Both the position numbers and the translations under genes were made by a program. 64,000 bases of DNA from contig FN648366.1 of the NCBI GenBank assembly GCA_000310025.1, positions 1,974 to 65,973 of the forward strand, read 5' to 3'. Shown here piece by piece: positions 16,512-57,700 of this stretch; within the stretch, counting starts at the first letter, position 1; the number at the start of each line of letters is the position of its first letter. The DNA comes from Ectocarpus siliculosus. Lineage: Eukaryota; Sar; Phaeophyceae; Ectocarpales; Ectocarpaceae. The notes beneath the pieces were generated by a model that ran no database searches, was not told the origin of the DNA, and saw nothing but the letters and a program-made list of their open reading frames with translations.

Positions 16512-17752
16512 CTATACAGCTCCGTCATCGACATCGCTATCCGTTTCACCCGGGCTACTGAGTGCCGAACCGTTGCTGCTTTCAACAACTGCGCTGCCAA
16601 AAATGCCGGGGCCATCTTCGTCAGCGCGGAGTGGGAAAATCGCCAACGCGGCTAGGCACAGCTTGCCAACCATGCAACAAATTTCCACCACAGTTAGCAC
16701 CAGCCGCACGTTCGTGGGTAGATCATCATGGTTGTACAAGTGGTAAATGACCACGCACACGATGAACTCCACGAGGGTCACCACCAGTCCGAGCCCAAAC
16801 GCCACCGTCCCGTCCATGACGGAGTCCAAGAAGGGCATGGCAACCAGTTTTACCCGTACTCGTTCCGTAACAGATTTAAGAGGTCTGGCCCTGTCTGTTT
16901 CTCTCGTCGACTTCCTAGTCCAGGCCGCCGCCATCCTTCTCACGAAGTACCGGGTCAACCACAGATACGGCAGCACCAAGAAAAACCACTTCCGCATCAC
17001 CAATGCCAACATGGCCAGGGGGACGAAGCGGCTAACAATCTCCAGGATGTGGTACAGTAAGCAGAGCCACACATGAGTGCGAGGGTGCACGTTGCCCCAT
17101 CCGTTCAACCTCGAGCCACCTTCCTCCGGCACGCGGCTGAACGGTAGCCCGGTTAGCCACGAACAGCAAGCGCAAATACCGTCTCCGCGTGGATCACCGA
17201 AGCTCTCAAGCCTCTTTGCGCTGAAAATATCGGTTGCGTTATACGCTAGACTACCCGCCGAGATGCACACCGAACCCAAACGCAGAACATTTCGCTGACG
17301 AGACGACCAAAGCAGCAGCGCCGCGTACAACTGCAGCAGCAACTGGGGCACCGACTCGAAGAGTGCCTCGATGAGGCGTACAAGTTCTAGGATTGGTGTG
17401 AATCTCCGTTTTACGACGTTCCTCCAGGCTTCCCCTAGCAAGCTCAGCTGGGTCGCTACGAAGAGACGACGTATCCACGGAACCCTTACCTGAACCATGG
17501 TGGGGGTGAGAAAAAACACGGATGCGATGATGCCCGGCCCAAGGGCAAAAACAAGCACAAGCGCAAACCAAAACAAGTCGCCTGACTCGTAGTAGGAAAC
17601 CGCAGCGGTGAGGTCCGAGATCAAGTCCAAATATCCGAAGAAAACCTGTAAGAGCACCGTCCCGGTAGGGAGAGGCGAGGATTCGGCATCCAGAACCCCC
17701 GTGTTGAAATTGTCAAAGTTCCTGAGGTTCACCACCTCCGTCGGAATCGGCC
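16512..17752 (-). CDS. Last exon: half LRR fused in frame to XK-related (XKR) domain
   Basis: The exon follows a ttttacag acceptor and opens GPIPTEVVNLRNFDNF, the start of an LRR, then continues without break. There is no ATG near the domain start; the frame runs from the LRR. XKR landmarks in order: LLQVFFGYLDLISDLTAAV (helix 1), GDLFWFALVLVFALGPGI (helix 2), then about residue 127 ESVPQLLLQLYAAL, the Glu-x-x-Pro-Gln signature of the family, then further helices (LVMRKWFFLVLPYLWL, VTLVEFIVCVVIYHL, VVEICCMVGKLCLAALAIF). The acidic Ser-rich tail ends DSDVDDGAV and TAG at 16,512. Length of about 400 residues equals animal XKR proteins. No caspase-type site can be claimed. Confidence 0.85.
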
Positions 17753-20700
17753 CTGTAAAACAGAACCGACGGGGTCACTGATTAGCACTGGCGCCTCGGG
17801 AACTTCACCCCCAACTGGTTATGACAAAATTCTTAATCCCCTGGAGGACTCTCTCGGTTTAGCGTGACAGAGCCATGACCTCAGCGGCGAGTCTACTGCG
17901 ACACTTGAGATTCTCACGACATCACAACAGAAACTAATCCCGCCCATAGACGCATTTCCTATCAAAGTGAAACAGATCATGTTACGCTGGTCAACCTCCC
18001 CGACTCGCCATCTAACTTGTTCCCGATGAGGTCGAGCCTCTCCAAGCGGCGAAGGCGTCCTAGCTGCCGTGGTATGGTTCCTGCAGATACATGGGGTATC
18101 GTTGGGATTCCGACGAAAAAAAAACGCCCGGGTGAGTAGGCCATGTTCCAGAGTCCTGGAATCCATAATGACGATTCCTCGCTATTTCGGTTTTGCTCTT
18201 CCGCTTGCAGGCTCCATTCTGCCGGAGCTGGGAGCTCTCAGCAAGCTGCAGCTGCTACATCTTCCATGGACGAGCTCAAAGGTACCGTAGCTCAAACATA
18301 TTTGCGCTTCTTTTAGACTACTCTCAATTCGATTCCATAGATGAATCCCGCCGATGTAGTGGTAGATACTCTAGAGTCTCAATGTTTCAGACAATTAACC
18401 AAAAGGATAATGCGGTCATTTTTTCTTCTCGTCATGTTTGATGGGTTCCAGAATTGGTTCGCCTGGCTTTGTCTGCGCGGAACGCATCCCCGGGGAATAG
18501 AGCCAGTTTCTGTGACTTCGACGGCCAACTACAGTACACGCCCCACTGACGCCGGCCGAGTTCCGCGCATGAGTGTTCATGTACCGACGACCCTCCTGCG
18601 TGCCTATGAAAAGGAAGCGCGAGAAAAAAATCGCTGGCGCGAGAGAAAGAAATGGCGAAGCATAATATTTGACCAAATCGTACACGTACATTATCATCCA
18701 CAACCATCTCACAGGCACTTTTATGGTCGGCTTAGGTTGTTCTAAAACAAATTCAGTGGACGAATCCCGCCGATGACTGCGCGGGATGAACCGCACACTT
18801 TGTACAGCGTGACCCACCAGTCAGGTGGTTGCTCGTAAGGTCGAGGCTCTCCAGTGCTGCGAGCTTTCCCAGCTCTGGCGGGATGGGACCTGCACGCGGA
18901 ATGGCAAATATGAGGTATACGCGATGCCGCCGTAGGCACTGCAGCACCTTTCATGATGAAACCGCGAGGTACTCGTCTGGCGCTTGGAGTGCCCTGGAAC
19001 TATTCGGGGCACTCGATGTCGGTGATATCGCACCCCTGTGCCATGTCACCGATCCCCGTGCGATAATCGGAACATAGTATTTTTATCGCACGGGGGTGCG
19101 ATATCAGCGATTTCACCGAACCGTGCATTCTCTCGCATCCGTACGGGATACGGTTTTGCTCGCTGCATAGGCTGCACACCGGACAACCGGTATTCAGCCC
19201 GAAATATCAATAACAGACGCGATGGCGCAAGCTTTGCAGAAGCACCGTGAGTAAAGATTCATTGTGACCAAGTTCATCTGGCGAGTTGTCGTTGGTAGCG
19301 AGAAACCTGTACGAAACATGCATGCGGGCCAATTTCCCTCTCTGTCGTTATTGACGGGTGTCAGAATTGTTTCGCCTGGCTTTGTTTGCGCGTAACGCGT
19401 CCCCGGGCTATAGAGCCACTTTGTGCGACACTGACCGTCAACTACACGCCCGACGGACGCCTGCCGAGCTCCGCGCATGAGCGTTACTGTACCGACGAGG
19501 ATCCTGCGTGCCTATGCAAAGGAAGCGCGAGAACAAAAACACTGCCGCGAGAGAAAGAAGTGGCGACGCCCAATAAATGGCCAAATCGTATCAGCTACGA
19601 CCATCTCACAGATACTTTTATTGGTCGTCTCAGGTTGTTCTCAAGTTGGTTCCATCGATGAATCCCGCTGATGCATGGGCGAGACACAAGTTCTAGACGA
19701 TTCGGACTGAAACGATGTACTTCTTGATCGTTTTACATGCTCATTGTTCTGCTGCTTATGCAGAACACACCCCCAAGGAGCTATGTAGCAGCTCCAACAA
19801 ACCCTGGAGAAATGTTGGCTGCAATGACATCAGCTCAACGGTGACGGACCGCGTCATACGAAGAGTAATTGAAATGTACCCATTGTTTCTGCTTTTCTAG
19901 ACCATTGGTCCTGCCAAGACGCGCAGCCGGTGGATGTTCTAGAAAAGGCGGGAGGCACACTCAGTTGATGTGGCCCGATCTTCCGTCTTTGCCCATTTGC
20001 TGCAGGCCCGATCCCGCCGGAGCTGGGAATACTTGCAGCACTGCAGGAACTCTACGTTTCGAGCAACCAGCTACCAGGTGAGTCTGTCGGTTCTCCCCCC
20101 ATCACGGTCAGCGTGAATCCCGCCCATGCGTTGGCGCGACAGCATCTACGGAGACCGTCTTGTCCTTGAAAAACAGGCGTGTTCAGTCATTCTCGCTATG
20201 TTCTCACCTGTCAGCTCATTGGTGCCCAGGTGAAGCGTTCTCAGGGCACCAAGGTTCCCTAGCTCAGGGGGAATGGGACCTGCAGCGCACGCAAACGTCA
20301 AACGTTAGAGAGTTGAGAATGTGCGTCCCGCGGCTCGTTGAACATGTACGAGATCGGTCTCGGTAGATCGGATCCTGCCCACGCGTATGCGGGATGCATC
20401 TTCTCAGAAACAGCAGCAACTTGGCGATGAACATACACCTTCGTCTCTCCACACCTGCAAGCTGGTTGAAGCTCAACCAAAGCTCCTTCAGCTCGGAAAG
20501 GTTGCCCAGCTCCTTGGGTATTGGCCCTGCACGAAGCAGCACGGCGACAAAACAAAATGAGATTATCGTGTGATTGTGGCGTCAAGAACAACGGTCCTGC
20601 CAATGTCGGAGGAAAAATCAAAATGTTGTTCCAGCAGGGTTCATCTGAATTTGATTTGGGGGAAAGCGTGGGCGTGACATATACATGTGTTGCAGAAATG

Positions 20701-23700
20701 AAAAAACACGATTCTGTAGCTTGTTGAGCGCGTCGAGTGGAGCGGGGATCGTACCTGCGTAGCCAGCGAAGGAGAGAAAGCTGCGGTCCCGTGTTTCCGG
20801 TTCCAGAACGTTCGTCCCGCCTACGCCCCGCCCACCCGTGGGGAGGACAAGATCTTCTATGGAAATCGATGCTCTGGAAAATAGAAAGCCGAGTCATTGC
20901 TTTTCTAATTCCTCGCTACGTTCGTATTGCTCTCCTGCTTATTCTTGCACGCCCAATCCCGTTGGAGCTGGGAAACCTCGCAGCACTACAGAACCTCCTC
21001 CTTCAGGACAACCAGCTCAGCGGTGAGTTACTCTCCATAGGTAATGTGCGCTTTTGGATTAGATTTTCGGTTAATCCTGCCGATGCGTTGGTGGGACAAG
21101 GTTACGGAGAGCGATGCTCTAGATTAAATACATGTACCACCTACGAACCAAACCCCCCGTCCCATCCCCCAAATACCAAATGCCATGAAATATCGGCGTC
21201 GCTAGGACAGTTCGGCAAGCGGGAAACCCTCTACCTCCACCGAAACAAACTCAGCGGTGAGTGTCTCCGACATATTCGGCGTGTGTGTACACGTCACATC
21301 GGATTGCATGAATCCCGCCTTGGTGTGGGCGGGACGAGATGTACGGAGATCGAACATCCAAATCTCAAATAAACCTCCTGCCCATTCCCTATCGCTATGC
21401 AGGCGAAATCCCTGCGTCTCTAGGACAGCTCAGCGAACTGTAAACGCTTAGCCTCTGGCAAAACGGCTTAAGCGGTAAGCGTCCCCGATAAGTTGGCCAT
21501 GGAGAAGTGACACGATGATTTTTTAGATGTTCAATCTCCGTAGAATCTGTCCCGCCAATGCATCAACGGGATTCAATCCGGAAATCGCGTAGAATGTCTC
21601 TCACCAGTAATTTGGATGTTCCAAAGGCTGAGCCACTGCAGTGCTGCTAGCTTACCCAGCCTCGGCGGGATGAATCCTGCACGCACACAAGAGCAGACCA
21701 AGTGAGCGGGAGCGTTTTCCATTTTTCCCGGGTGTCTTTTCTCTATGTCATCGATCACCGTAGATCCTGTCCCGCCAACTCGTGGGTGAGATTCAACATT
21801 TCCACGCGGAAACGAAAGACTTCAGATCAACACATATACCTTCCAGGTTGTTGCAGCTGAGCTGCATGGTCGTCAGAGCTGTGAGGTTCCCCAGGTCCTC
21901 CGGAATTGGACCTGTTTTAGCACGCGAGAGGAACAAGGAGTGATCAACCGCACACAATGCAACTCAATTACGTTGACGCGGCCCGTTGCTAGAACATATT
22001 GTCTTGTTCTGTAGAAATAAAGAGAGTCAAATGCTGCCCTATTCGTTCTCACCTGTTAGCTCATTGATCTCTAGGTGGAGCGTTTTCAGGGCACCAAGGT
22101 TCCCCAGCTCAGGAGGAATGGGACCTGCAGCGCACGCAAAAACATACTTTAGAGAGTTCAGAACGTGTGTCCCCGGCCTCCAGAATATGTACAGGATCGA
22201 TCTCCGTCGATCGTGCCCCGCCCACGCGTTACGCGTTGGCCGGACCGTTGTAAGCTTCATCTCAAGATATCCTTGTTTTTTTCGCCGCCGTGCTGCTTTG
22301 TGCAGAGCTAAAGGGCCATTTCTTATCAGACCGCTATCAGACCGCGTTTTGGGGATACTTTTCCCACCAAAGGGACAGTCCAAAAACGGATCTACAAAGG
22401 ATATCACCCGCTTCTTAAGGTGCTGGTCGATCGTTTTTCTAATCCGAGTCATCCACCAAAACAAAGAGAGTCTGTGCAACGACCGCTCGTCACACATACA
22501 TACGTGTACCTTCCTACCGCTCGCTTTGGGTTTTCGGTGATATCTCCGCACAGAGTGAAGCAGCAGCAGCTGTAAAGCTATCGCCCGCGAGCTGTGTGTA
22601 TGGTCCGTGTTGTGTGGCGGTTGATAGAGACCACAGGGCGATAGGATTCACGGAATCTGAGGTGGCGAGAGTCAACAGCATGCTGGAAAAAAGCCCACCG
22701 CGCCAGCAACCAGTTTGTTTTGTCTTTTGTCCGTGTCGCAACATTGGATTACACCGGTGATCCGTCGCCACCCACTGAAGCAACAGCGATGACAAAGGTA
22801 TCTGCCACGAGCTGTGTGAATGGTCCGTCTTGTATGGTGGTTGATACAGCCCAGGAGGCTGAAGGGCGTTCAGGATTGCGAGCGCCAGAGTCATGGACAA
22901 GGGGGAAGAATCACCCCCCGCGTCTTCAAGCAGATTTTTTTCTCTTCTTTTGCCCGTGTCTCAATTTCGTTCACCGATGATCCCTCGCCATCCACTGAAG
23001 CAACAGCGATGACAAAGATATCCGCCACGAGCTGTGTGTATGGTCCATCTTGTATGTATGGTGGTTGACACAGATCAGGAGGCTGAAGGGCGTTCGGACG
23101 TTGGGTTCGAAAAAAGTGAAAAGTTCACGAAAAATGACCCACCGCTGCTGCCTCGTCCCGGCTCTCTCGGCTCGTTAGCCGCTTGTTTCCCGTCCACATC
23201 GGGATGTCCACCTGGTCCAGCCGAATGAAAGAAGCAAAGGCTACCCATCGATGCTACCGACTCTGTACCAGCCACATGACACAACTCGTTCGACCACCGT
23301 TGGAGTTTGCGGGGATCAGCTGTCGAGAGATTCAAGTTTGTGCTTGAGAGTCATGGGATTGTGACCAAAAGTTGTCGTGTGACTTCGTTTCTTGGCAGCC
23401 CCAATCTGTCCAATAGTTGCCCGAAAAAACACAGAATGGCGTGTCCAAAAAGGCTTGTTGTTTGTGGTACTTGGATATGAGTCCGATCTGTGCATCCTAT
23501 GTCGGGGATACGCGTATGGGAAGTATGAGTGTGATGGGTACTTATGCGGTTGGGGTCCAAGTGCGCCCCCCCCGCGTGAGCACACGGCGGTGTGCTCCCG
23601 GCACTTGCCTGAGGGGCTTGCGTGACGGTAATATATAATACATGGTCCTTTTTCATCTGCTGTTCCTGGGACAACATAGTCCCCAGTCTCAACACCACAG

Positions 23701-26700
23701 ACCGCTGAGGGCGGCAGTGCACTAACACGATATCGAGTGGAGCCTAGCTAGGCCAGGTGTTGGTTCAGCGGTGAGGGATAGAGCGAGAGAGTTGGAAGAA
23801 GAAGCGAAGAAAACGGCAGCCGAGAATGCGGAGTTACGAAGGAGGGTGGGTGAAGTAGAGGAGAGGAGTTCAGCGGAGGAAGCCGCGAGAGGGAGAGTGG
23901 GCGATGCCGGATATGCGGCTGGTTTTTATGGGGGTGGCGAGAGTAGCCCGCCCCCACGACTTGTTTTTTTCGGAGAGAGAGGGAAAGACACCCGCGTGTA
24001 CGGCGGATACCAGCAACATGTGACGAGCGGTGTGCAGCCGAGCAGCTGCCACGACCACGTCCTGAGAGGGCACTGCCAGTACCAGCATCAGCAGCAGCTG
24101 GTGACCAACGCACGCCCTCCCGCTGCTCCTCCTCCAGCTGCGCAGCCGTAGCAGCAGCGTATCACAGTTGCTGCAGCACGTTGCCAGTACACCCCCCATT
24201 GGCAGCAGGAGCAGTGCGTGCAGCAGAGGAACATGCCACCGCAACCGGTCCAGCAGCACCCCGTGCCCCAGCAGCGTCGCCAATAGCCTCTACCGCAGCA
24301 ACCTCGTCAACAACAGCAACCTATACAGTCCTGCAATGGCGCTCCGGGTACTACAGCTCCAGCTTTCGCCCGAGGACCACTTCAGCAGCAGCGGAGGACC
24401 GACGGGGACAACGGTGATGGCGGTGGTGACAGCAGCGGTGGCGGTATCGGAGGAAGCAGCGCCGGCATCCGCAAGGCGATCTCCACGACGACGCCCTCCA
24501 CGGTCTCACGACCTCTTCAGCGCCTCTTCGCCGACCTCATGGGCCCGCTTCCGCCATCCGCCTGTGGTAACACCTACTGCCTCGTCTTGGTCGATGATTA
24601 CAGCAACTACGGCATCATCAAATAGGACAAGCACGCCAGCACCGTGACGAAAGCACTTCGCGAGGTACTCGTTTCGCTCCACCCTCTGCGGGCTGCCCAC
24701 GGCGACTTTCAGTTCCTTCGGACGGAATGGGTGGTCAACGCGTGGTGAGCGACTTGTTTCTGGAGTTCGGCATCACTCGCGAGCTGACATCCCCGGACGG
24801 AGGGCAGACGCGTAACTGCAGGGTGGAGCGTTGGATTGGGCTCGTGAGGGAGGGCGGCAGGGCGGCGTTCACGGAGGCTTTCTTGCTCTTCCCCGACTTT
24901 CAGTTTCCTTGGCCGGCCTGCGACTACAACCGCATATGGCCGGAGGCATGGAGCTGGATGTCGGCCTGCATAAACACACAGCCGCGACTCGACAAGAAGG
25001 CCGACATGCTGTGCCCGTACGAGATGCTCCACGGGAAGCGCCTTCTATGTCATCCTCTGCCCTTCCTCATGCCGGGTATCGACTACGCGCGTGTCTCCGC
25101 CAAGATCGCGCCGAAGGGCGCTCGGTGTTTTCACCTCAACTCTGGTGACTTCCTTTCCCACGACTGCTACAAGGTCATTTTCCCCTCCGGCGCCGCGGGG
25201 TACACCACGGACGTTGTTTGGGGTTACCGCCGCCAACCGTTCGTCGGCTTCGTGCCCACGTACAACAGGGGCGCCGTTTCTGCGCCGGCAGCGGCAGCGG
25301 CGGCGGCGACGGCGGCGGCGGCGGCGACAGCGGCACCGGCGCCTTCGACCCTCGCGGCATCGGCAGAAGTCAGAGCACCGGCAGCGGCGACGACGACAGC
25401 TGCAGGAGCGCCGGCGGAAGTGCGGACGGCTTCGGCCAGAACCCCGTCGACGGCAGCAACGCCACCGGAAGCAGTGGCGGCGGCGGCGGTATCGATGACG
25501 GGGGGAACGGCAGCAGCGGCAGCAGCAGCGTCGTCCCCGGTCGCCGCGCTGGCATCGGAAGGAGCGGCGGTGGCACGGATGGTTTCGGCCAGAGCGCCGT
25601 CCCCGACAGCAGCGGCGGCGGCGTCGACATCGGTGACGGCAGTAACGGCAGCGGCGACAGCAGCAGCGGCGTCCCCGGTCGCCGCGTTGGCGTCGGGTAT
25701 CCAGGCGGCCGCACGGGCGGCGGCGGCGGCACCGGTGACGGAGGTATGTGACGAAGAGTTGGAGGAAGCGGTTGGTGCGACAACCATGCCATTGCCAGTC
25801 CTAGAGGAGCTTGATAGCCAATGTGCTGCGGGGGACGTGAGCGGCGATGGGGGCGGGGACGAGGGGTTGGATGAAATCTGGAGTGGAGCCCCAACGCACC
25901 CTTTCGACCCCGGGAAGGCTAAGGGGGACGTGAGCAGCAGCGGCCGCAGCGGCGGCGGTAGCGACATCGGTGACGGGGGGAACGGCAGCGGCAGAGGCAG
26001 CAGCGGCGTCCCCGGTCGCCGCGTTGGCGTTGGGTGTCCAGACGGCCGCAAGGGCGGCGACGACGGGTTGGATGAAATCTGGAGTGGAGCCCCGACGCAC
26101 TCCTTCGACCCCGGGAAGGCTGAGGGGGACGTGAGCAGCAGCAGCAGCAGCGGCAGCTGTAGCAACAGCGGCGAGGACGGTGGCGGCGATGGGGGCGGGG
26201 ACGAGGGGTTGCATGAAACCTGGAGTGGAGCCCCGACGCACCCTTTTGATCCCGGGAAGACTGAGGAAGAAGTGAGCTGCAGCAGCAGCAGCAGCGAGGA
26301 AAGCGGCGGTGATGGGAGCGGGGATAAGGCGTTGGATGAAACCTGGAGTGGAGCCCCGACGCACCCCTTCGACTCCGGTAAGACATGCGCGAGGAGACGG
26401 GGGGCGGTACCAGCGGTGGCGTACCCCTTCGATAGGGGCAGGAACGGGAGTGGCAGCTCCCGCGGCGGCAACGGCGGCAGCCGCAGCAGCCACGGGATTG
26501 GCGGCTTCGGCCAGAGCTCCGGCGGTGACACCGGCGGCAGCAGGAGCAGCGACGGGAGTGGTGGCTTCGGCCAGAGCTCCGACCGCAGCAGAAGACGGCA
26601 GCGGCGGCTTTGGCCAGAGCCCCGTCGGCGCAGCGGCGACAACGGCGGCGGTGGTAGAGGCGGCAGCAGCGACGTCACCGGCAGCCGTGTTGGCGCTGGA

Positions 26701-28799
26701 ACTTATGACGGTCGTGGCGGCGAGCGAACGGTAACGGCGGCAATGGCGGCGGCGGCAGCAGCGGTGGCGCCCTCGAGTCGACCGAGAACGGGGAGGGCAC
26801 GGTGATAGCGACGACCTCACCTTGTTACAGCCAAGTGGGAGAACATGTGAAACGTTTATGACTTTGTTCGATTTTGTGAGCAGGCATGGACGTTTTGGCT
26901 TCGCCATTTGGCTTCGCGTTTATGTTTTTGTTCTGTTTTTCCCTTGCTAGCGCACCGTGCACTTTGATGCAGAAAACACGTGTGTGCCACGGCATGTGCG
27001 CAATTTGTTTATTTTTTTTACTTGGTTTCGTGATAATAATTGTACGCTGTGACCAGATAAGCATTGCCACAACCTGTGGAATAGGAAGCAGCATGTGGGT
27101 ATTTTCGTTTCATTGGTTCTTCGTACAATTTCAGTCGCGTTCTACCTTGCAGCTGAATGCTTCATATTATTTCCGTATTCTTTGGAGGGAGTACGTTCAG
27201 TCGCGTTCTTTTAATACGCATGTTTTGCTGCTCTTGCATCGAAAATCATGGGGGGGGATGTCATGTATGACCATGATTCTAGAGGGCATGAGCAGCATTC
27301 GAATTGGTTCGTTTTCTGGTCTTGTCTATTTGTGTGTTACGTATACGGCAAAGCAGGGGGGACTGTTGGCATCGAGATATTAGCTCGGGGTGAATTTTGG
27401 GAGCTGACACCAGGGGGGCTGTTTGCGTGGATGCTTGATTATATTTTCTATCGTTGCTTGGACAACAGCGACGGTAGGTACCGATTAGCGGGTGCACGCT
27501 GTTTAGGATTTGGTCCTTGGACACTATATTGGAGGAAGGGTTTGACATGTTTTGACGATTTATGGCCGGGGCCATTGTGCTTTCCGAATTCTCGTTTTGA
27601 TTGGTCAAGAAGTTGAGTTTTTGTTTTGTTTGAGGATGGATTTGGTGCCAACTCTTTTGAAATTGTTTTTTCCAGAAATGTCCGTTTTCGTGCTGACGCT
27701 TTTCTGATGTAGTACAAATGATTGTTCGGTACTTTTCTGAGAATAATTTTTTTTGTGTCATCAACGGTTTGAGATTATTTCCAGAGACGAACGCGTTGGA
27801 TTCGTGAATAAACTGATGGAGACTCTTTGTGTTGAATGCGTAGCCAGTTTTGTTGAATAAGTTTTATTCTCAAGGGGTGTTTTTCTGTGTTGGCTGATTG
27901 CGCGTGAAGGGTTGCAAGATCGTACATCGTATCAAGTAGGGGGGCTGTTTGTGGTACTTGGATATGAGTCCGATCTGTGCATCCTCTGTGGGGGATACGC
28001 GTATGGGAAGTATGAGTGTGATGGGTACGTATGTACGCGGTTGGGGTCCAAGTGTGCCCCCCCCGCTTGAGCACACGGTGGTGTGCTCCCGGCACTAGCC
28101 TGAGGGGCTTGCGTGACGGATATATATAATACATGGTCTTTTTCATCTGCTGTTCCTGGGATAACATAGTCCCCAGTCTCAATGCCACAGACTGCTGAGG
28201 GCGGCAGTGCACGAACACTTGTCTTTGTTTCCCGGTCTTTAAAACACCTCGTGAGAAGGGCTTCTTTGGCCAGTTGTCTTTCTTTTGTGATGGAAAAAAG
28301 AAAAATATCACCGAAAAGAGGCGACAGAAAGAAATGGTCACTTGCCCCAAAGAGCTGGGAGCGCTACAATATCCAAGCTGAGCGAAAACCGGCTTACAGG
28401 TGTGTGTGTGTGAGGGAGAAGATGCTTGTGTTCATGGCCGAAGGTACTGCTGCTTCTCGAACATGTACCCCGCCGACGCCGTAGAGGGAGGACCCGTGTT
28501 CTAGAACCTAGGCATGGATCAAGTCCACGACATTCATTCGTGACTGAATTCGAAACGATGGTCGAGCACATTTATCCATCTCTAGAGAAAAGCACGTGCA
28601 AGCAGCAATTACCGAGTAACTAACCTTGGAGGTTGTTCATCGCCAGATTAAGCCTGACCACTCGGCCCCGGTCGTTGACTTCGACTCCATCCCATGTCGC
28701 TAGGGCAGCATCTGTGTCCCAGTTGCCTCTTCGCCTCCATCCAGCCCCGCCGGTCCAACGAAACAGGGCAATCAGTGCTTCGCGGTCCGTCGAAGCCAT
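16512..28799 (-). CDS. LRR-XKR fusion gene: N-cap, seven LRRs, XK-related membrane domain
   Basis: Inferred join on the minus strand: cap exon 28,799-28,625; LRR exons 22,124-22,053, 21,911-21,840, 21,676-21,605, 20,526-20,455, 20,279-20,208, 18,889-18,818, 18,080-18,009; last exon 17,752-16,512. Every internal exon is 72 nt and every junction is phase 1, so the frame holds throughout. The product would be roughly 640 residues: cytosolic-looking cap with no signal peptide, LRR fan, then an XKR domain with several membrane helices. By family knowledge XKR proteins are phospholipid scramblases; an LRR sensor joined to one suggests ligand-controlled membrane change, which is inference. The first intron would be 6.5 kb and holds a Copia element, so transcription across it is unproven. 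Confidence 0.55.
18009..18080 (-). CDS. Sense LRR exon (last before XKR), GC donor
   Basis: 72-nt phase-1 exon; starts after ctgcag and ends g|gcgag, so the donor is GC instead of GT. Variable strand LERLDLIGNKLDG. GC-AG introns are a known minor class, but here it could also be a damaging T-to-C change. Confidence 0.7.
18211..18281 (+). pseudogene. Antisense LRR cassette, frameshifted (71 nt)
   Basis: Follows cttgcag and ends before gtacc, but is 71 nt long: a base is missing near the LxL codons (LQLLHLPW...). Encodes SILPELGALSKLQLL before the break. It is on the strand opposite to the LRR-XKR gene. Confidence 0.7.
18430..18775 (+). repeat. ~340-bp direct repeat, copy 1
   Basis: Shares with 19,345-19,680 long runs such as gaattggttcgcctggcttt, ctcctgcgtgcctatg and the ending gaatcccgcygatg. 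A shorter relative is at 39,170-39,250. It lies inside an LRR intron and has no convincing coding role. Confidence 0.7.
18818..18889 (-). CDS. Sense LRR exon
   Basis: Intact 72-nt phase-1 exon with cag acceptor and gtggg donor. Framework PIPPELGKLAA, variable strand LESLDLTSNHLTG. Part of the LRR-XKR gene. Confidence 0.85.
19019..19110. repeat. Foldback repeat in LRR intron
   Basis: The words gtgatatcgcacccctgtgc and gcacgggggtgcgatatcag form inverted repeats around a short loop. It is related to the GCACCGGGGTGCGA family at 11,095-11,858 and is probably a small MITE. Confidence 0.65.
19345..19680 (+). repeat. ~340-bp direct repeat, copy 2
   Basis: Second copy of the repeat at 18,430-18,775, same orientation, with scattered differences. 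Confidence 0.7.
19764..19840 (+). pseudogene. Antisense LRR cassette, highly degenerate
   Basis: Follows cttatgcag and ends before gtgacg. Traces of an LRR remain (TPKELC near the start, an Asn/Asp-Ile-Ser end), but the length is 77 nt and the leucines are lost. Confidence 0.45.
20006..20077 (+). CDS. Antisense LRR cassette, intact
   Basis: 72 nt, phase 1, gctgcag acceptor and gtgag donor. Encodes PIPPELGILAALQELYVSSN then QLPG. It is the only undamaged cassette on the strand opposite the LRR-XKR gene; whether it is transcribed is unknown. Confidence 0.65.
20208..20279 (-). CDS. Sense LRR exon
   Basis: Intact 72-nt phase-1 exon, tgcag acceptor and gtgag donor; variable strand LRTLHLGTNELTG. 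Exon and upstream intron are a direct duplicate of the exon at 22,053-22,124, differing at R/K, G/E and T/I. Confidence 0.85.
20455..20526 (-). CDS. Sense LRR exon
   Basis: Intact 72-nt phase-1 exon, tgcag acceptor and gtgtg donor. Encodes PIPKELGNLSELKELWLSFN then QLAG. Confidence 0.85.
20951..21022 (+). pseudogene. Antisense LRR cassette with lost acceptor
   Basis: 72 nt with an open LRR frame (variable strand LQNLLLQDNQLSG) and a gtgag donor, but the preceding bases are cttgcac, so the acceptor AG has become AC. Confidence 0.7.
21185..21256 (+). pseudogene. Antisense LRR cassette with lost acceptor
   Basis: Open frame with variable strand RETLYLHRNKLSG and a gtgag donor, but the expected cag|gt is replaced (tgcc|at), so splicing into it should fail. 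Confidence 0.6.
21403..21474 (+). pseudogene. Antisense LRR cassette with in-frame stop
   Basis: 72 nt, tgcag acceptor, gtaag donor. Encodes EIPASLGQLSEL then TAA then TLSLWQNGLSG; the stop is one change from CAA (Gln). Confidence 0.75.
21605..21676 (-). CDS. Sense LRR exon
   Basis: Intact 72-nt phase-1 exon, tgcag acceptor and gtgag donor. Encodes FIPPRLGKLAA, variable strand LQWLSLWNIQITG. Confidence 0.85.
21840..21911 (-). CDS. Sense LRR exon
   Basis: Intact 72-nt phase-1 exon, aaacag acceptor and gtata donor. Encodes PIPEDLGNLTA, variable strand LTTMQLSCNNLEG. Confidence 0.85.
22053..22124 (-). CDS. Sense LRR exon (first after the cap exon)
   Basis: Intact 72-nt phase-1 exon, tgcag acceptor and gtgag donor; variable strand LKTLHLEINELTG. 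The next upstream sense exon recognised is the cap at 28,625. Confidence 0.8.
22536..23105 (+). repeat. Three tandem ~220-bp units with a Cys-containing reading frame
   Basis: Units start near 22,545, 22,758 and 22,977. Each contains (c)gatgacaaagrtatcygcc or its diverged form, then gagctgtgtg(t/a)atggtccgt and a ggttgayacag segment. Translation gives SPASCVYGPCCVAVDRD, SATSCVNGPSCMVVDTA and SATSCVYGPSCMYGG. They could be duplicated exons or a satellite. No family was recognised. Confidence 0.6.
23454..23458 (+). repeat. Target-site duplication CTTGT (left)
   Basis: Directly precedes the 5' LTR and is repeated as CTTGT at 28,218-28,222 directly after the 3' LTR. Five bases is the usual length for Copia-type integration. 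Confidence 0.8.
23459..23727 (+). repeat. 5' LTR of the Copia-type element
   Basis: Begins tgtttgtggtacttggatat and ends gcagtgcactaaca. It differs from the 3' LTR at roughly a dozen positions plus small indels, so the insertion is not very young. Confidence 0.85.
23771..24150 (+). pseudogene. Copia element gag-like N-terminal region
   Basis: Frame starting MRDRARELEEEAKKTAAEN is a charged coiled-coil-like helix followed by a His/Gln-rich stretch. No zinc knuckle. Its place just after the 5' LTR suggests gag, but similarity is not recognisable. Confidence 0.4.
24490..26805 (+). pseudogene. Copia-type integrase with stop, plus low-complexity extension
   Basis: From 24,510 the frame reads LFADLMGPLPPSACGNTYCL then VLVDDYSNYGIIK, the start of a Copia integrase core, then TAG near 24,624. 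Further on (24,727) are TSPDGGQTRNCRVERWIG (the SPxxxxxN...VER region with the catalytic Glu) and CPYEMLHGKR (the PYE motif). The expected second Asp box (DNGGEF type) is degenerate, and there is no RT downstream. From 25,270 to 26,800 the frame is a run of Ala/Ser/Thr with repeated GLDEIWSGAPTHPFDPGK units. The enzyme would join element DNA to the chromosome; this copy looks dead. Confidence 0.7.
25840..26400 (+). repeat. Four imperfect repeats encoding LDEIWSGAPTHPFDPGK
   Basis: The stretch ttggatgaaa(t/c)ctggagtgg followed by agccc(c/g)aacgcacycyttcg recurs near 25,866, 26,068, 26,208 and 26,331, spaced by Gly/Ser-rich codons. It is an internal expansion of the Copia element ORF. Confidence 0.7.
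26806..27945 (+). other. Non-coding 3' part of the Copia element
   Basis: No domain or credible reading frame on either strand; ends in the polypurine tract at 27,934-27,944. Includes the dispersed word cagtcgcgttct twice (27,131 and 27,199). Confidence 0.6.
27946..28217 (+). repeat. 3' LTR of the Copia-type element
   Basis: Begins tgtttgtggtacttggatat and ends gcagtgcacgaaca; followed by the CTTGT target duplication at 28,218. Confidence 0.85.
28341..28399 (+). pseudogene. Antisense LRR cassette remnant
   Basis: Reads CPKELGALQYPS then stop in the LRR frame and ends cttacag|gtgtg, like a truncated LRR exon with deleted centre. It lies between the Copia element and the cap exon. Confidence 0.45.
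28625..28799 (-). CDS. N-terminal cap exon of the LRR-XKR gene
   Basis: ATG at 28,799 gives MASTDREALIALFRWTGGAG, then a W-rich stretch (GNWDTDAALATWDGVEVND), then RGRVVRLNLAMNNLQG, ending at a gttagt donor in phase 1. This is the classic N-cap of plant-type LRR proteins (ALxALxxxTGG..W....W........W.GV....GRVvxLxL). No signal peptide precedes it, so an intracellular start is likely. The paralogous exon at 51,620-51,794 has exactly the same 175-nt length and the same start, which supports this ATG. The shared word ccctgagcaatgg spans the start in both. Confidence 0.85.
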
Positions 28800-51619: not shown

Positions 51620-51794
51620 ATGGCTTCCACGGACCGTGAAGCACTGAGTGCCGTGTTTCGTTTGACTGGCGGGGCTGGATGGAGGCGAAGACGCAACTGG
51701 GACACAGATGCTGCCCTAGAGACGTGGGAAGGAGTCAAAGTCAACAACCAGGGCCGAGTGGTCACGCTTGACCTGCCCGGTAACAACCTCCAAG
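51620..51794 (+). CDS. N-terminal cap exon of the LRR-ZU5 gene
   Basis: MASTDREALSAVFRLTGGAG, then RNWDTDAALETWEGVKVNN and QGRVVTLDLPGNNLQG, ending at a phase-1 gttagt donor. Same length and start as the cap at 28,625-28,799, from which it differs at scattered residues. Confidence 0.88.
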
Positions 51795-54700
51795 GTTAGT
51801 CCTTCGGCATTTGCTGCTTGTGCTTTCCTCTAGAGATGGACAAACGTGCTTGACCGTACTTACGAATTCGTGGAGTAACATGCTTGATCCAGCTTGCAGC
51901 TTCTAGAACGTGTCCTCCCTACGGCGTGGGCGTCCATATGGGAATCTATGGAAGTCGAAAGGGATTCATGATCAATTTTTCAAGGCTTCTAAACTTGAGA
52001 GGGGTAGTACCAGATATTTCTGGGCCCAAATATTGCCTCACCGCTGAGCTGGTTACTCCAAAGGGATTCATCCACGGAACCAGTTTGGTAAACATTGAAC
52101 AACCCCCAAAAAAGTTTCGAAAGTTGGTACCTGTCAGCTTGTTGTTGTTCAGGGCCAGCGCCCGCAGCTCGCTGAGAGCTCCCAGCTCCGGCGGGACGCG
52201 CCCTCCAAGCCAAACGGGGGGATAGCGGAGTTAGTAAGCGGGGGGAAACACAAATCCCCCGACTTGTAGAACACCTACTCACCCAAGCCGGGCGATTTAT
52301 TTTTTTATTGCCCGTTAAATTCGTGTGGCATGCATTGTGCGCCATGCCACAGGAACGATACCGGTGGAGCTAGGGAAGCTGACTGCGCTGGAGGCGCTTA
52401 TTCTGGGCAGAAACAACCTCTCAGGTGACATTACCCGAAAGTTCGTTTTGCATGTTACTAGATGTGTCGCCCCCCCGCATCGGCGGGATTCATCCTGGAC
52501 ACTGGAACAAAATTACGTACCAGTTAGCTCGTTCCCCCCAAGGCTGAGGTACTCCAGTACGGCGAGCCGTCCAAGCTCCACAGGGATGGGACCTGCAATC
52601 GAAGGAGAAAAAGCGACAACACAGTACCCATAATGTAGCGGGAAGAACCAAAGCTAAATGCCCCGGCTTCTAGAAACACCTACTCTAACGCAACTCGTAG
52701 CAAACGATGTCCTGCGAGTTCCGAAATTGCGGAATTTCGTACTCACCCACGCGTTGGCGTCCACTCACTGGTCTAGAAGCCGGGGCATTATTTTTGTTTT
52801 GACCCGCAACCATCACTCCGTTTTCCTTCTTTCACTTACAGGTCCCATTCCGCCGGCTCTGGGAAAGCTCGCAGCGCTTCAAACTCTGTACCTCGAAGGG
52901 AACCAGCTAAGCGGTGAGACACTGTTTAGAGTTGTTGAAAAAGTATCCCATGAATTTTCAACATGAATCCCGTGTATGCATGGGTGAGTAGGTGTTCTAG
53001 AAGTCGGGGGATTTTTGTGTTTTCCCCCGCTTACTATCTCCGCTATCCCCCCTTTGGCTTGCAGGGCGCATCCCGCCGGAGCTGGGAGCTCTCAGCGAGC
53101 TGCAGGTGCTGGCCCTCCACAACAACAAGCTGACAGGTACCAACTTTTGCAACTTTTTTGGGGTTGTTGAATGTTTACCAAACTTGTTCCGTGCATGAAT
53201 CCCGTGTATGCGTGGGCGGGACCGATGTTCTGGAAGTTCAGAAGTCGAAAGAACAAATGTTTTTTATCATCTACTCAACTCACCCTCTAGCTTGTTGTAG
53301 CTGAGGTCGAGGGTCTTGAGGGCGCCAAGATCTCCTAGCTGCCGCGGGATGTGGCCTGTAGATGAACGAGTCAAAGCAGGGCAGTTTAACGGGATAAAAG
53401 CAAAAGATACCTCCCGCTTTCTAGAAGATCCGTCCCGCCAACTAAAGAAAAATCCCCGCGCTTTCCGTACAAAAGTTTCGTGGACGCCAACGCATGGGTG
53501 AGTAGGTGTTCTAGAAGTCGGGGGATTTTTGTGTTTTCCCCCGCTTACTATCTCCGCTATCCCCCCTTTGGCTTGCAGGGCGCATCCCGCCGGAGCTGGG
53601 AGCTCTCAGCGAGCTGCAGGTGCTGGCCCTCATCAACAACAAGCTGACAGGTACCAACTTTTGCAACTTTTTTGGGGTTGTTGAATGTTTGCCAAACTTG
53701 TTCCGTGCATGAATCCCGTGTATGCGTCGGCGTCCATGCACGTTTCTCTAGAAGAAGTGAGAATTGGCCTTTGCTATTCGCCCCTTAAAATTGTTTTTGA
53801 ACGTTCGACTGACTGCAGGCCCCATCCCGCCGGAGTTGGGGAAGCTTGCAGCACTGGCGACGCTCAACCTTCAAAATAACCAACTAACTGGTGAGTATTT
53901 TGCACGGGTTTCACAATGAATCCCGCCGATGCGTACGCGTCCATGGATCTACGGAGATTGAACATAAAATAATGAGGATCAATCTAGTTTGCTTGTCTGC
54001 TTACAGGGCCTATCCCGCCGGAGCTGGGCAAGCTAACAGCGCTGGTGCAGCTCCGACTGTGGAACAACCAGCTATCCGGTGAGGCTGAAGTTGAGCATGA
54101 ATGCGTATGCGTGGGTGAGTACGAAATTTCGCAATTTCGGAACTCGCGGGACATCTTTTGCTACGCATTGGGGATTGATTTTTTTTCCCGCTAAGTTTGT
54201 TTTTGCTCATCTGCTTGCAGGCCGTATCCCACCGGAGCTCGGAAACCTTGGAGCACTGACGGCGCTCGACCTAGACGCCAACAAGCTAAGCGGTGAGAAG
54301 CAAAACATCGAAAATTGCTTTCCACTAATGATTTTGCACAAGAATATCATGAGTCCTGTGCACGCATCGGCGAGATTTAGTTGGCGTCCACTCACTGGTC
54401 TAGAAGCCGGGGCATTATTTTTGTTGCGACCCGCAACCATCTCTCCGTTTTTCTTCTTCCACTTACAGGTCCCATTCCGCCGGCGCTGGGAAAGCTCGCA
54501 GCGCTTCAAGATCTGTCCCTCTACAGAAACCAGCTAAGCGGTGAGACACTGTTTTAATGTGTTGAAAAAATTTCCCATGAATTTTCAAGATGAATCCCGT
54601 GTATGCATCGGCGGGATTCATTCATTTTTTCCGTGGGGTGAAAAGGATTCATGCCGATGCTTGCAGGAATGACTCACCGCTCAGCTGGTTGCTGTAAAGG

Positions 54701-57700
54701 TAGAGCTGCTTCAGTGCTGAAAGGTGCCCAAGCTCCGATGGGATGGGGCCTGCAAGCGGACGGACGGAAGGGAGTAGCTCAGCGGGACAAAATAAAACAA
54801 CCCCCCGCTTTCTAGAACATTGGCCCCGTACAAAAGTTTCGTGGACACCTACGCGTACGCGTCCACGAAACTTCAGAACTAGCGGGATAACAATTATGAC
54901 GCCAAGTGCGTGGGTGAGCACGGAACTCGCAGGACATCGTTTGCTACGAGTTGCGTTATTGAGTAGGTGTTTCTAGAAGCCGGGGCATTTAGCTTTGATT
55001 CTTCCGCTACATTATGGGTACTGTGTTCTCGTTTTTTCTCCTTCGATTGCAGGTCCCATCCCTGTGGAGCTTGGACGGCTCGCCGTACTGGAGTACCTCA
55101 GCCTTGGGGGGAACGAGCTAACTGGTAAGTAATTTTGTTCCAGTGTCCAAGATGAATCCCGCCGATGCAGTACGCGTCCACGAAACTTCAGAACTAGCGG
55201 GATAACTTTTATGCCGCCAATACGCGGCATTCATGCTCAATTTCATGACTCACCGGACAGCTGGTTGTTCGACAGGTCGAGAATGACGAGCGCTGTGAGC
55301 TTGCCCAGCTCCGACGAGATAGGCCCTGCAAACAGAGAAGCAAAACAAATACTCCATTATTTGGGGGGGGACTACCAAAAAGTTTATGTTCGATCTCCGT
55401 AGATCTATGGACGCGGACGCATACGCGGCATTCATGCTCAACTTCAGCCTCACCGGATAGCTGGTTGTTCCACAGTCGGAGCTGCACCAGCGCTGTTAGC
55501 TTGCCCAGCTCCGGCGGGATAGGCCCTGTAAGCAGACAAGCAAACTATATACATTGATCCTCAATATTTTATGTTCGATCTCCGTAGATCCATGGACGCG
55601 TACGTAATTGGCGTCACAAAAGTTACCCCGCTAGTTCTGAAGTTTCGTGGACGCGTACGCGTGCGCGGGACTCATGCGTTCAGAAGTCGAAAGAAAAAAT
55701 ATAATTTTTTACTACTCAACTCACCATCTAGCTTGTTGTAGCCGAGGTTGAGGGTCTCGAGGGCGCCAAGATCTCCTAGCTGCCGCGGGATGTGGCCTGT
55801 AGACAAACGAGTCAAAGCCGGGCAATTCAGCGGGGTAAAGTAAAATATATCACCCGCTTTCTAGAACATCGGTCCCGCCGCGTTGGCGTCCACGAAACTT
55901 CAGAAATAGCGGGTACGAAATTTCACAATTTCGGAACTCGCGGGACATCTTTTCCTACGCATTTTTTTCTACAACTGTCCTTGCTGATATTTTCTCCCTG
56001 CTGCATTCTTGTGCAGGACCCATCCCCAAGGAGCTGGGAGCACTTAGTAGGCTGGAGACGCTTTGGCTCCACCACAACAACCTCACAGGTGAGAGAATCG
56101 AAGAAGAGTTGAAAGTTTTCTTGTTCACGAAATAAGAATCCTGCCGACGCATACGCGGGATTCATTCATTTTCAGAAATCGAAAGAAAACAAAACTCTTT
56201 TTGGTCTTTTTAACTCACCATCTAACTTGTTCATGGAGAGGTTGAGGACCTTCAGGGCGCCAAGCTGTCCGAGCTGAGGCGGGATATGGCCTGTAGATGA
56301 ACGAGTCAACGCAGGGCAGTTTGGCAAGGTACAGAAAAGTTTATCCCGCGAGTTTTGAAATTTCGTACCCGCCCACTACATCGGCGAGATTCATCCATGG
56401 ATTAATGCTAGAAAAAAACTAAACCGACCATCAAAATAAAATACGTACCTGTGAGGTGGTTGTTGCTGAGCCACAGCCTCTGCAGCTGTCGGAGATCTCT
56501 TAGCTCTGGCGGGATGTTGCCTGCCAGAGGAACGGAAAATAAGAAGTTGGCGGGAGAAAACAAACTTAATCCCCCGGCGTCTAGAAAAACGGTCCTGCCA
56601 ACGCAGTGGGCGGTACAAGCTCTACGGAAATCGATGATATTAAAAAAAATCCCGTTGTAACTGCCTCCGCTGTATCTTTTGTGCAGGCCCCGACAAGTTT
56701 TCACGTAGTTCGAAGTAGAATAATTTGGTACCTGTAAGGTTGTTGGCGTTGAGGTAGAGAACCTTCAGCTCCCTGAGAGCTCCCAGCTCCGGCGGGATGT
56801 GGCCTGCGATGGGCAGAGGGAACACGGAGTTTGGGTCACGGGACGAAACAAATATATTCCCCCGGCTTCTAGAAAACACCTCCTCACCTACTGCCCAGCT
56901 CCGGCGGGATGTGGCCTGCGACCGCCAGAGAGAATACGGAGTTCGGGTTGCGAGACAAAATAAACATATTCCCCCGGCTTCTAGAACACACTACTCACCT
57001 ACTACAACGGCAGGATTCACCCTGCAGGTAGCTCGTTTTGACCAAGTTTGGGATCCTTTCATGCTCGAGCTCCGACGGGATGGGACCTGCGCACGGAAGA
57101 ACTCAGACAATATGGGAAATAGGCAGAAGTGGGTGTGTCCCTACCCAATTCATTTATCGCAACATGAAACATAAACTCGTGGCATGTGCCTCCCCCTCTC
57201 ACATTGTTGTTGACGAGACAGCAAGTCCAAAACGACGTCATGTGACTGTGATGCGTGAGATGATTCCACCATGCGTGACTCCATATGATGCGAATCATCT
57301 GTACGCGCAGGGGCCGTGCCAGCATGCCTCGTCAAGCTCGGCGAACTTTTCTCTTTGGGCCTCGGCGACAACCAGCTCAGTGGTGAGGGTTTCGGAGATT
57401 TGTCTCTTGCAAGTGGTCGTACCATCTACCATCTAGATTACGGGGCATTAAATGGGCTAAATTAGCTGCAACGGCAAAAAAAAATCAATGCATTCTTTTC
57501 AAAAACATTATTTTGACGTACAGTCCAAAAAGATTTAATTCTTAGTGAAAATCTTTCAACAGTTTCTCAGTTATGTGCCCCCAACAATTTGGTGTTGAAC
57601 GTAGCCACATCCGCAACTCTTTTTGCTTGCCCCATGTGCGTGAGCCACAGGTCCGGTGCCCTCACTTCAGCAGCTCAAAGATCTTCGCGACGCTCTGGTC

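What the first reader, a model, noticed from the sequence alone, without database searches (positions are those of the whole stretch)
16512..28799. LRR sensor fused to an XK-related scramblase-type domain
The XKR exon has no start codon of its own. It opens with GPIPTEV, a phase-1 LRR start behind a good acceptor, and runs in frame into FGYLDLISD... and ESVPQLLLQLY. Seven intact upstream sense LRR exons and a cap exon all share the phase. XKR proteins in animals expose phosphatidylserine when activated; an LRR-XKR receptor would be a new way to couple recognition to membrane change. I know of no described LRR-XKR family.
Basis: partly seen in the sequence, partly recalled or inferred. Interest (0 to 1): 0.92.

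Follow-up and report, generated by a model that had tools for sequence, protein, structure and literature searches.

The report
Brown-algal LRR–XKR scramblase fusion gene
A brown seaweed gene joins a modular leucine-rich-repeat recognition domain to a membrane protein of the family that, in animals, exposes phosphatidylserine on dying cells; some relatives in the same genome and in related seaweeds show the same joined layout.

Summary
On the minus strand a nine-exon model runs from 28799 to 16512: cap exon, seven 72-nt LRR exons and a 1241-nt XKR exon, all in one phase, 639 aa. One weak point not mentioned in the finding: the last LRR exon has a GC donor, not GT.

The fusion is a family. Three more XKR loci of this genome lie behind LRR arrays, and 8 of 37 database relatives carry LRR and XKR Pfam domains in one protein. 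An in-silico splice of one paralog matches an independently annotated 878-aa Ectocarpus protein at 839 of 866 aligned residues.

The LRR is most likely cytosolic, so this looks like an intracellular sensor on a scramblase-type domain, not a surface receptor. Scrambling, ligand and transcription are untested. Ten literature searches of an open-access library showed no report of it.

The parts
28625..28799 (-). Exon 1: start codon and N-terminal LRR cap (MASTDREALIALFRWTGGAGW...NNLQG), 175 nt, donor GT(TAGT)
   Evidence: 63 matches to this cap in the genome, itself included
22053..22124 (-). LRR exon 1, 72 nt (GPIPPELGNLGALKTLHLEINELTG)
   Evidence: AG acceptor, GT donor
21840..21911 (-). LRR exon 2, 72 nt
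21605..21676 (-). LRR exon 3, 72 nt
20455..20526 (-). LRR exon 4, 72 nt
20208..20279 (-). LRR exon 5, 72 nt; with flanks (96 nt in all) 91% identical to LRR exon 1 (exon duplication)
18818..18889 (-). LRR exon 6, 72 nt; best copies elsewhere in the genome at 93% and 83% identity
18009..18080 (-). LRR exon 7, 72 nt; non-canonical GC donor (G|GCGAGT)
16512..17752 (-). Last exon: LRR half-repeat lead (GPIPTEVVNL), XK-related membrane domain, acidic tail, stop TAG; 1241 nt
20005..20079 (+). Antisense LRR exon copy, intact
20950..21024 (+). Antisense LRR copy, acceptor lost
21184..21258 (+). Antisense LRR copy, acceptor lost, diverged
21402..21476 (+). Antisense LRR copy with an internal stop
18210..18284 (+). 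Antisense LRR copy, donor lost, diverged
23459..28218 (+). Stretch in intron 1 bounded by a 93% identical direct repeat pair (23459-23728, 27946-28218), probably an LTR-retrotransposon insertion
   Evidence: element class judged by eye, no Pfam hit

Best explanation
A brown-algal gene of a small multigene family makes one protein: an N-terminal cap, a stack of 24-residue LRRs each encoded by its own interchangeable exon, and a C-terminal XK-related domain. Supported by sequence and prediction: the gene layout, its recurrence at other loci and in relatives, and the XKR fold. Inferred: the LRR sits in the cytosol, fused to the N-terminus of membrane helix 1; it recognises a ligand or a modified host protein; this shifts the membrane domain from closed to open; phospholipids then scramble along the polar path lined by D43, D47, R126, E129 and E133; loss of lipid asymmetry is the output, as a death or alarm signal. 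In animal XKR8 and XKR9 a C-terminal tail is the lock; here I propose that the fused LRR took over the role of switch. My odds: one fused gene 0.9, XKR fold 0.97, scrambling activity 0.6, LRR-gated output in defence or cell death 0.4.
Against: GC donor at the last LRR-XKR junction. No transcript data in these tools. hXkr8 R183, needed there for scrambling of PS and NBD-SM, is Ser in 32 of 32 (the equivalence rests on an ungapped extension of the alignment). hXkr8 D129, a structural salt-bridge residue, corresponds by ungapped count to position 121, which is acidic in 0 of 32; D295 and R98 were not placed. 29 of 37 database relatives are annotated without an LRR Pfam domain, though 20 of the 24 proteins with 30 or more residues before helix 1 open with the LRR half-repeat. 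One C30 XKR locus and a 43-residue match at C476:197300 have no LRR exon in the stretch fetched. The cytosolic LRR rests on hydropathy and on animal topology. The first 30 residues and the tail of the XKR-only model have low confidence, and no lock was identified.
Confidence: 0.6

Rival explanations
1. The fusion is real, but the domain is not a scramblase: it works as a channel, transporter or a membrane anchor that docks a partner (as XK docks the lipid-transfer protein VPS13A).
For: [quoted passage not shown] The R183 equivalent is Ser in 32/32 and the D129 equivalent acidic in 0/32. VPS13A binds a cytosolic loop of XK; replacing residues 94-115 of its hairpin was tested there (PMC9436381, passages).
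Against: Five of six residues needed for Xkr8 scrambling are kept. The alga has 144 residues where the Pfam profile has 174 positions and the XKR8 chain shows inserted residues in that stretch, so the VPS13A-binding hairpin is probably missing (inference).
Confidence: 0.25
2. The window copy is a decaying or silent member: the family is fused and working, this copy is not.
For: GC donor at LRR exon 7; a 4.8-kb stretch bounded by LTR-type repeats in intron 1; no expression data.
Against: All nine exons are open; the XKR frame is open for 413 codons; the close Ectocarpus sp. 8 protein P0004 joins the same last two LRRs to the same XKR start (45/48 and 302/320 identical).
Confidence: 0.12
3. LRR exons and XKR exon are separate genes that merely lie in line; the LRR array is a reservoir of exons.
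For: PMC11378527 (section 15) reports 15 non-ROCO sequences with shuffling LRR exons in Saccharina japonica, most with only LRR motifs. Mixed-orientation arrays exist at 51.6-57.4 kb and in L031.
Against: The XKR exon opens with half an LRR and has no Met before residue 86; fused annotations in relatives; exon order shared by the C8 locus and P0034; sense copies intact, antisense copies mostly not.
Confidence: 0.05

Closest known systems
Animal XK-related scramblases (XKR8, XKR9, XKR4; CED-8 from a passage of PMC8298096)
   Different: N-terminal LRR array fused on; 16-18% identity in the structural alignments; R183 equivalent is Ser, D129 equivalent not acidic; no C-terminal lock recognised
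Brown-algal LRR-ROCO genes with shuffled 72-bp LRR exons (PMC11378527)
   Same: Same exon length and codon split (passage); same cap module (9 of 63 cap matches precede a ROC domain, 3 precede XKR); an LRR exon shared at 83% with a locus between a cap and a ROC domain
   Different: Membrane XKR domain in place of the ROC-COR GTPase
Plant LRR receptor kinases (HAESA, FLS2, PEPR1)
   Different: No signal-peptide-like stretch; no kinase family among Pfam hits of five relatives; XKR output domain; LRR probably cytosolic
NLR-type immune receptors (recalled)
   Same: Proposed cytosolic LRR recognition coupled to a membrane event
   Different: No nucleotide-binding family among Pfam hits of five relatives; sensor and membrane effector are one polypeptide

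Membership tests
XK-related (PF09815) | Profile score above the curated cut-off | tested here: met
   57.9 bits against 24.8
XK-related (PF09815) | XKR fold with eight membrane helices in two repeats | tested here: met
XK-related (PF09815) | PQL kink and acidic cluster (D26, D30, E137, E141 of hXkr8) | tested here: met
   D 27/27, D 26/27, E 29/32, E 31/32, P 32/32, Q 29/32
XK-related (PF09815) | Conserved salt-bridge pairs R214-D295 and D129-R98 | tested here: inconclusive
   R214 position is R in 32/32; D129 position acidic in 0/32 (ungapped count); D295 and R98 not placed
XKR scramblases | Basic residue at R183 (needed in Xkr8) | tested here: not met
   Ser in 32 of 32; equivalence by ungapped extension of the alignment
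XKR scramblases | Lipid scrambling activity | not testable with these tools
   needs an assay
XKR scramblases | C-terminal tail lock released by protease or kinase | tested here: inconclusive
   Tail 381-413 has pLDDT below 50; no site search made
Brown-algal shuffled LRR exon class | 72-bp exons, nucleotides 3-71 encoding 23 residues (PMC11378527) | tested here: met
   7 of 7
LRR-ROCO | ROC-COR domain behind the LRRs | tested here: not met
   No ROC or COR match on the window's contig C477; the search is exon by exon and scores only the best candidates
Plant-type LRR receptor kinase | Signal peptide and extracellular LRR | tested here: inconclusive
   Highest 19-residue hydropathy in the first 100 aa is 0.36, against it; crude test, no predictor run
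NLR | NB-ARC or NACHT module | not tested
   The 639-aa fusion was not itself scanned; five relatives gave only LRR and XKR families at E<=0.01

The most novel reading that the evidence does not exclude
A family of intracellular receptors in which recognition and membrane execution sit in one polypeptide: a cytosolic LRR, kept diverse by copying of single exons between loci in either orientation, directly gates a lipid scramblase. It would be a route to cell-death or alarm signalling by lipid exposure that needs no caspase and no nucleotide-binding module.
Probability: 0.35. Interest if true: 0.92.

Novelty: new variant of a known kind. Interest (0 to 1): 0.76.

Why it matters
The XKR scramblases described in the papers I saw are animal proteins, unlocked by proteolysis or phosphorylation. 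A brown-algal branch with an LRR fused to the first helix would mean that lipid scrambling was wired directly to recognition in a separately evolved multicellular lineage. It gives a defined, testable candidate for how seaweeds couple recognition to cell fate, and it shows that the shuffled LRR exons reported for ROCO genes also stand before a membrane effector.

Tried and rejected
Rejected: XKR as a stand-alone gene (no Met before residue 86). Rejected: chance similarity. Not supported: a viral source; one scan of viral contigs with the family alignment found 55 pattern matches and no relative. Left open: VPS13-type docking. No tRNA by a bacterial-code scan and no Rfam match at gathering thresholds in the window. 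The 50 rows shown by Foldseek for the whole fusion were plant LRR proteins, so the XKR exon was folded alone. Literature: ten searches, judged from the listed titles and abstract starts (one search listed 8 of 78), showed no LRR-XKR or brown-algal XKR report; most subscription papers are outside the library. Pfam and PDB searches of the 336-aa ORF at 58483-59493 gave nothing significant; my notebook's impression of a ZU5-like domain there is by eye and unsupported. The third protein search was not used.

Weak points of my counts: the LRR scoring matrix was built from 18 repeats of the window itself, so it is circular for the window but not for C8 and C476. The intactness test accepts GC donors; without that it is 22 of 23 against 3 of 19. 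The regex (20 of 24) misses P0002, which starts one residue late, and P0029, a slight variant; P0008 and P0011 start inside the lead. One search used 32 of 38 family proteins; P0004, P0030, P0033, P0035, P0037 and P0038 were not in that alignment. Both protein searches scored only the 7996 candidates sharing most words, so relative counts are lower bounds. In one search rows that reflect overlapping windows of neighbouring exons were not used. The side-and-strand control was run for ROC and XKR, not for the 336-aa ORF.

Full report
1. What is there. The window is from a brown alga: 17 of the 37 relatives of the XKR exon bear names, 15 Ectocarpus and 2 Scytosiphon, and the host genome held here has 189 Mb in 492 contigs. 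On the minus strand, 28799-16512, a nine-exon model is open throughout: a 175-nt cap exon with the ATG, seven LRR exons of exactly 72 nt, and a 1241-nt last exon. Every junction splits a codon after its first base. Eight of eight acceptors are AG. Seven of eight donors are GT; the donor of LRR exon 7, the one that joins the XKR exon, is GC. The product is 639 aa. The XKR exon's first Met is residue 86, behind two predicted membrane helices; a script listed eight alternative first exons between 18008 and 17753, all from two ATGs and none convincing.

3. Is the fusion real? (a) The XKR exon carries half an LRR in front of helix 1. Of 38 family proteins, the window's own included, 29 matched a helix-1 pattern, 24 of these have at least 30 residues before it, and 20 of the 24 show the LRR half-repeat. 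(b) 8 of 37 relatives carry LRR and XKR Pfam domains in one annotated protein, from Ectocarpus fasciculatus, four other Ectocarpus and Scytosiphon promiscuus; 29 do not. (c) In this genome nine XKR matches fall at seven places. LRR-like exons stand in line upstream at five: the window 7, C8 12, C476 4, C16 8 (6 intact by my test) and one C30 locus with a single one that lacks an AG acceptor; the other C30 locus and a 43-residue match at C476:197300 had none in the stretches fetched. Both C30 loci show stops inside the match, which may be introns or decay. The C16 copy is only 31-37% identical and still opens with GGIPLSLRNH, with a cap-like frame upstream that is not among the 63 cap matches; so the fusion looks old. 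(d) The C8 exons, spliced in silico, give 867 aa that match the Ectocarpus sp. 6 protein P0034 at 337/346 residues in the LRR part and 502/520 in the XKR part. (e) P0004 of Ectocarpus sp. 8 joins the window's last two LRRs to the same XKR start, 45/48 and 302/320 identical.

4. Selection. At the window, C8 and C476 loci 23 of 23 sense LRR exons are free of stops and keep splice sites, against 3 of 19 antisense copies lying among them (Fisher p=5.8e-9; 22 of 23 and p=8.8e-8 if GC donors do not count). At C16, 6 of 8 sense exons pass. The three XKR exons differ with pN/pS 0.43-0.54; dS is 0.88-1.32, so this is a family-level statement.

5. Where the LRRs come from. The genome has 63 matches to the cap (a lower bound; five contain stops). 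Within 25 kb downstream on the same strand, 9 of the 63 have a ROC domain, 3 have XKR, 3 have the 336-aa ORF family (one cap is shared with ROC); wrong-side or wrong-strand controls are 1 for ROC and 0 for XKR. LRR exon 6 with its flanks is 93% identical to an exon behind a cap on C9 and 83% to one between a cap and a ROC domain on C483. LRR exon 1 has copies at 80-91%, some antisense to the nearest cap. LRR exons 1 and 5 of the gene are 91% identical over 96 nt. So single exons with roughly 10-130 nt of flank are copied within and between loci, in either orientation; that sense copies are kept and antisense copies decay in XKR genes is my reading. The ROCO paper (PMC11378527; passages and section 15 read) describes the 72-bp exon class and shuffling in ROCO genes; the words XK-related and scramblase do not occur in its main text.

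6. How it probably works. The first 100 residues hold no hydrophobic segment (best 19-residue hydropathy 0.36), so nothing suggests export of the LRR. XKR9 has eight membrane helices with longer loops inside and an intracellular C-terminus (PMC8298096, passages), which by an even count puts the N-terminus inside too. The LRR therefore most likely hangs in the cytosol from helix 1. In Xkr8, D26, D30, K/R134, E137, E141 and R183 are needed for scrambling (PMC8500837, passages). The alga keeps the first five (27/27, 26/27, 31/32, 29/32, 31/32) and has Ser for the sixth in 32/32; R214, the residue changed in McLeod-type mutants, is R in 32/32 (positions equated). The salt-bridge residue D129 has an acidic counterpart in 0 of 32. 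Human XKR8 is held shut by its C-terminal tail (PMC10938166, abstract and outline). The algal tail is predicted with very low confidence, as if disordered, so I propose that the fused LRR is the switch. Steps supported: gene layout, family, fold. Steps inferred: cytosolic LRR, scrambling, ligand gating, role in defence.

7. Novelty. Searches for LRR with XK-related, brown algae with scramblase, Ectocarpus with XK-related or XKR, stramenopile with XKR and scramblase, and LRR with XKR, fusion and scramblase listed no such report in the held open-access library. Where a source gives a name, the database relatives are called unnamed protein products. Both halves are known, their union is not described as far as I could see: a new variant of a known kind.

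Noticed in passing
51620-57384: A second cap-LRR cluster (cap on +, 51620-51793) with intact LRR exons on both strands, 11 of 11 plus and 10 of 10 minus. Four exon-centred pairs of 188-249 nt recur in opposite orientation at 91-97% identity, further pairs are shorter or more diverged.
   Followed up: partly
58483-59493: 336-aa open frame downstream of that cluster on +, no significant Pfam or PDB match; four further matches in the genome at 52-57% identity, two of them downstream of a cap. A possible further output domain for cap-LRR genes.
   Followed up: partly
23459-28218: LTR-type element in intron 1 of the LRR-XKR gene: 93% identical direct terminal repeats; internal plus-strand frame looks like a retroelement polyprotein by eye, no Pfam hit.
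   Followed up: partly
18009: GC splice donor at the only junction that joins LRR to XKR, where the other seven donors of the gene are GT.
   Followed up: no
L031: Another cap locus (C16:1133454) whose LRR exons lie on both strands: 10 on the cap's strand, 4 opposite, by regex.
   Followed up: no
L010 and L011 (C8 locus): Twelve intact sense LRR exons are interleaved with fourteen antisense copies, twelve of them broken, as if single exons were pasted in without regard to orientation.
   Followed up: partly
L014 to L016 (C16) and L017, L018 (C30): Diverged XKR paralogs at 31-37% identity; the C30 matches contain stops.
   Followed up: partly
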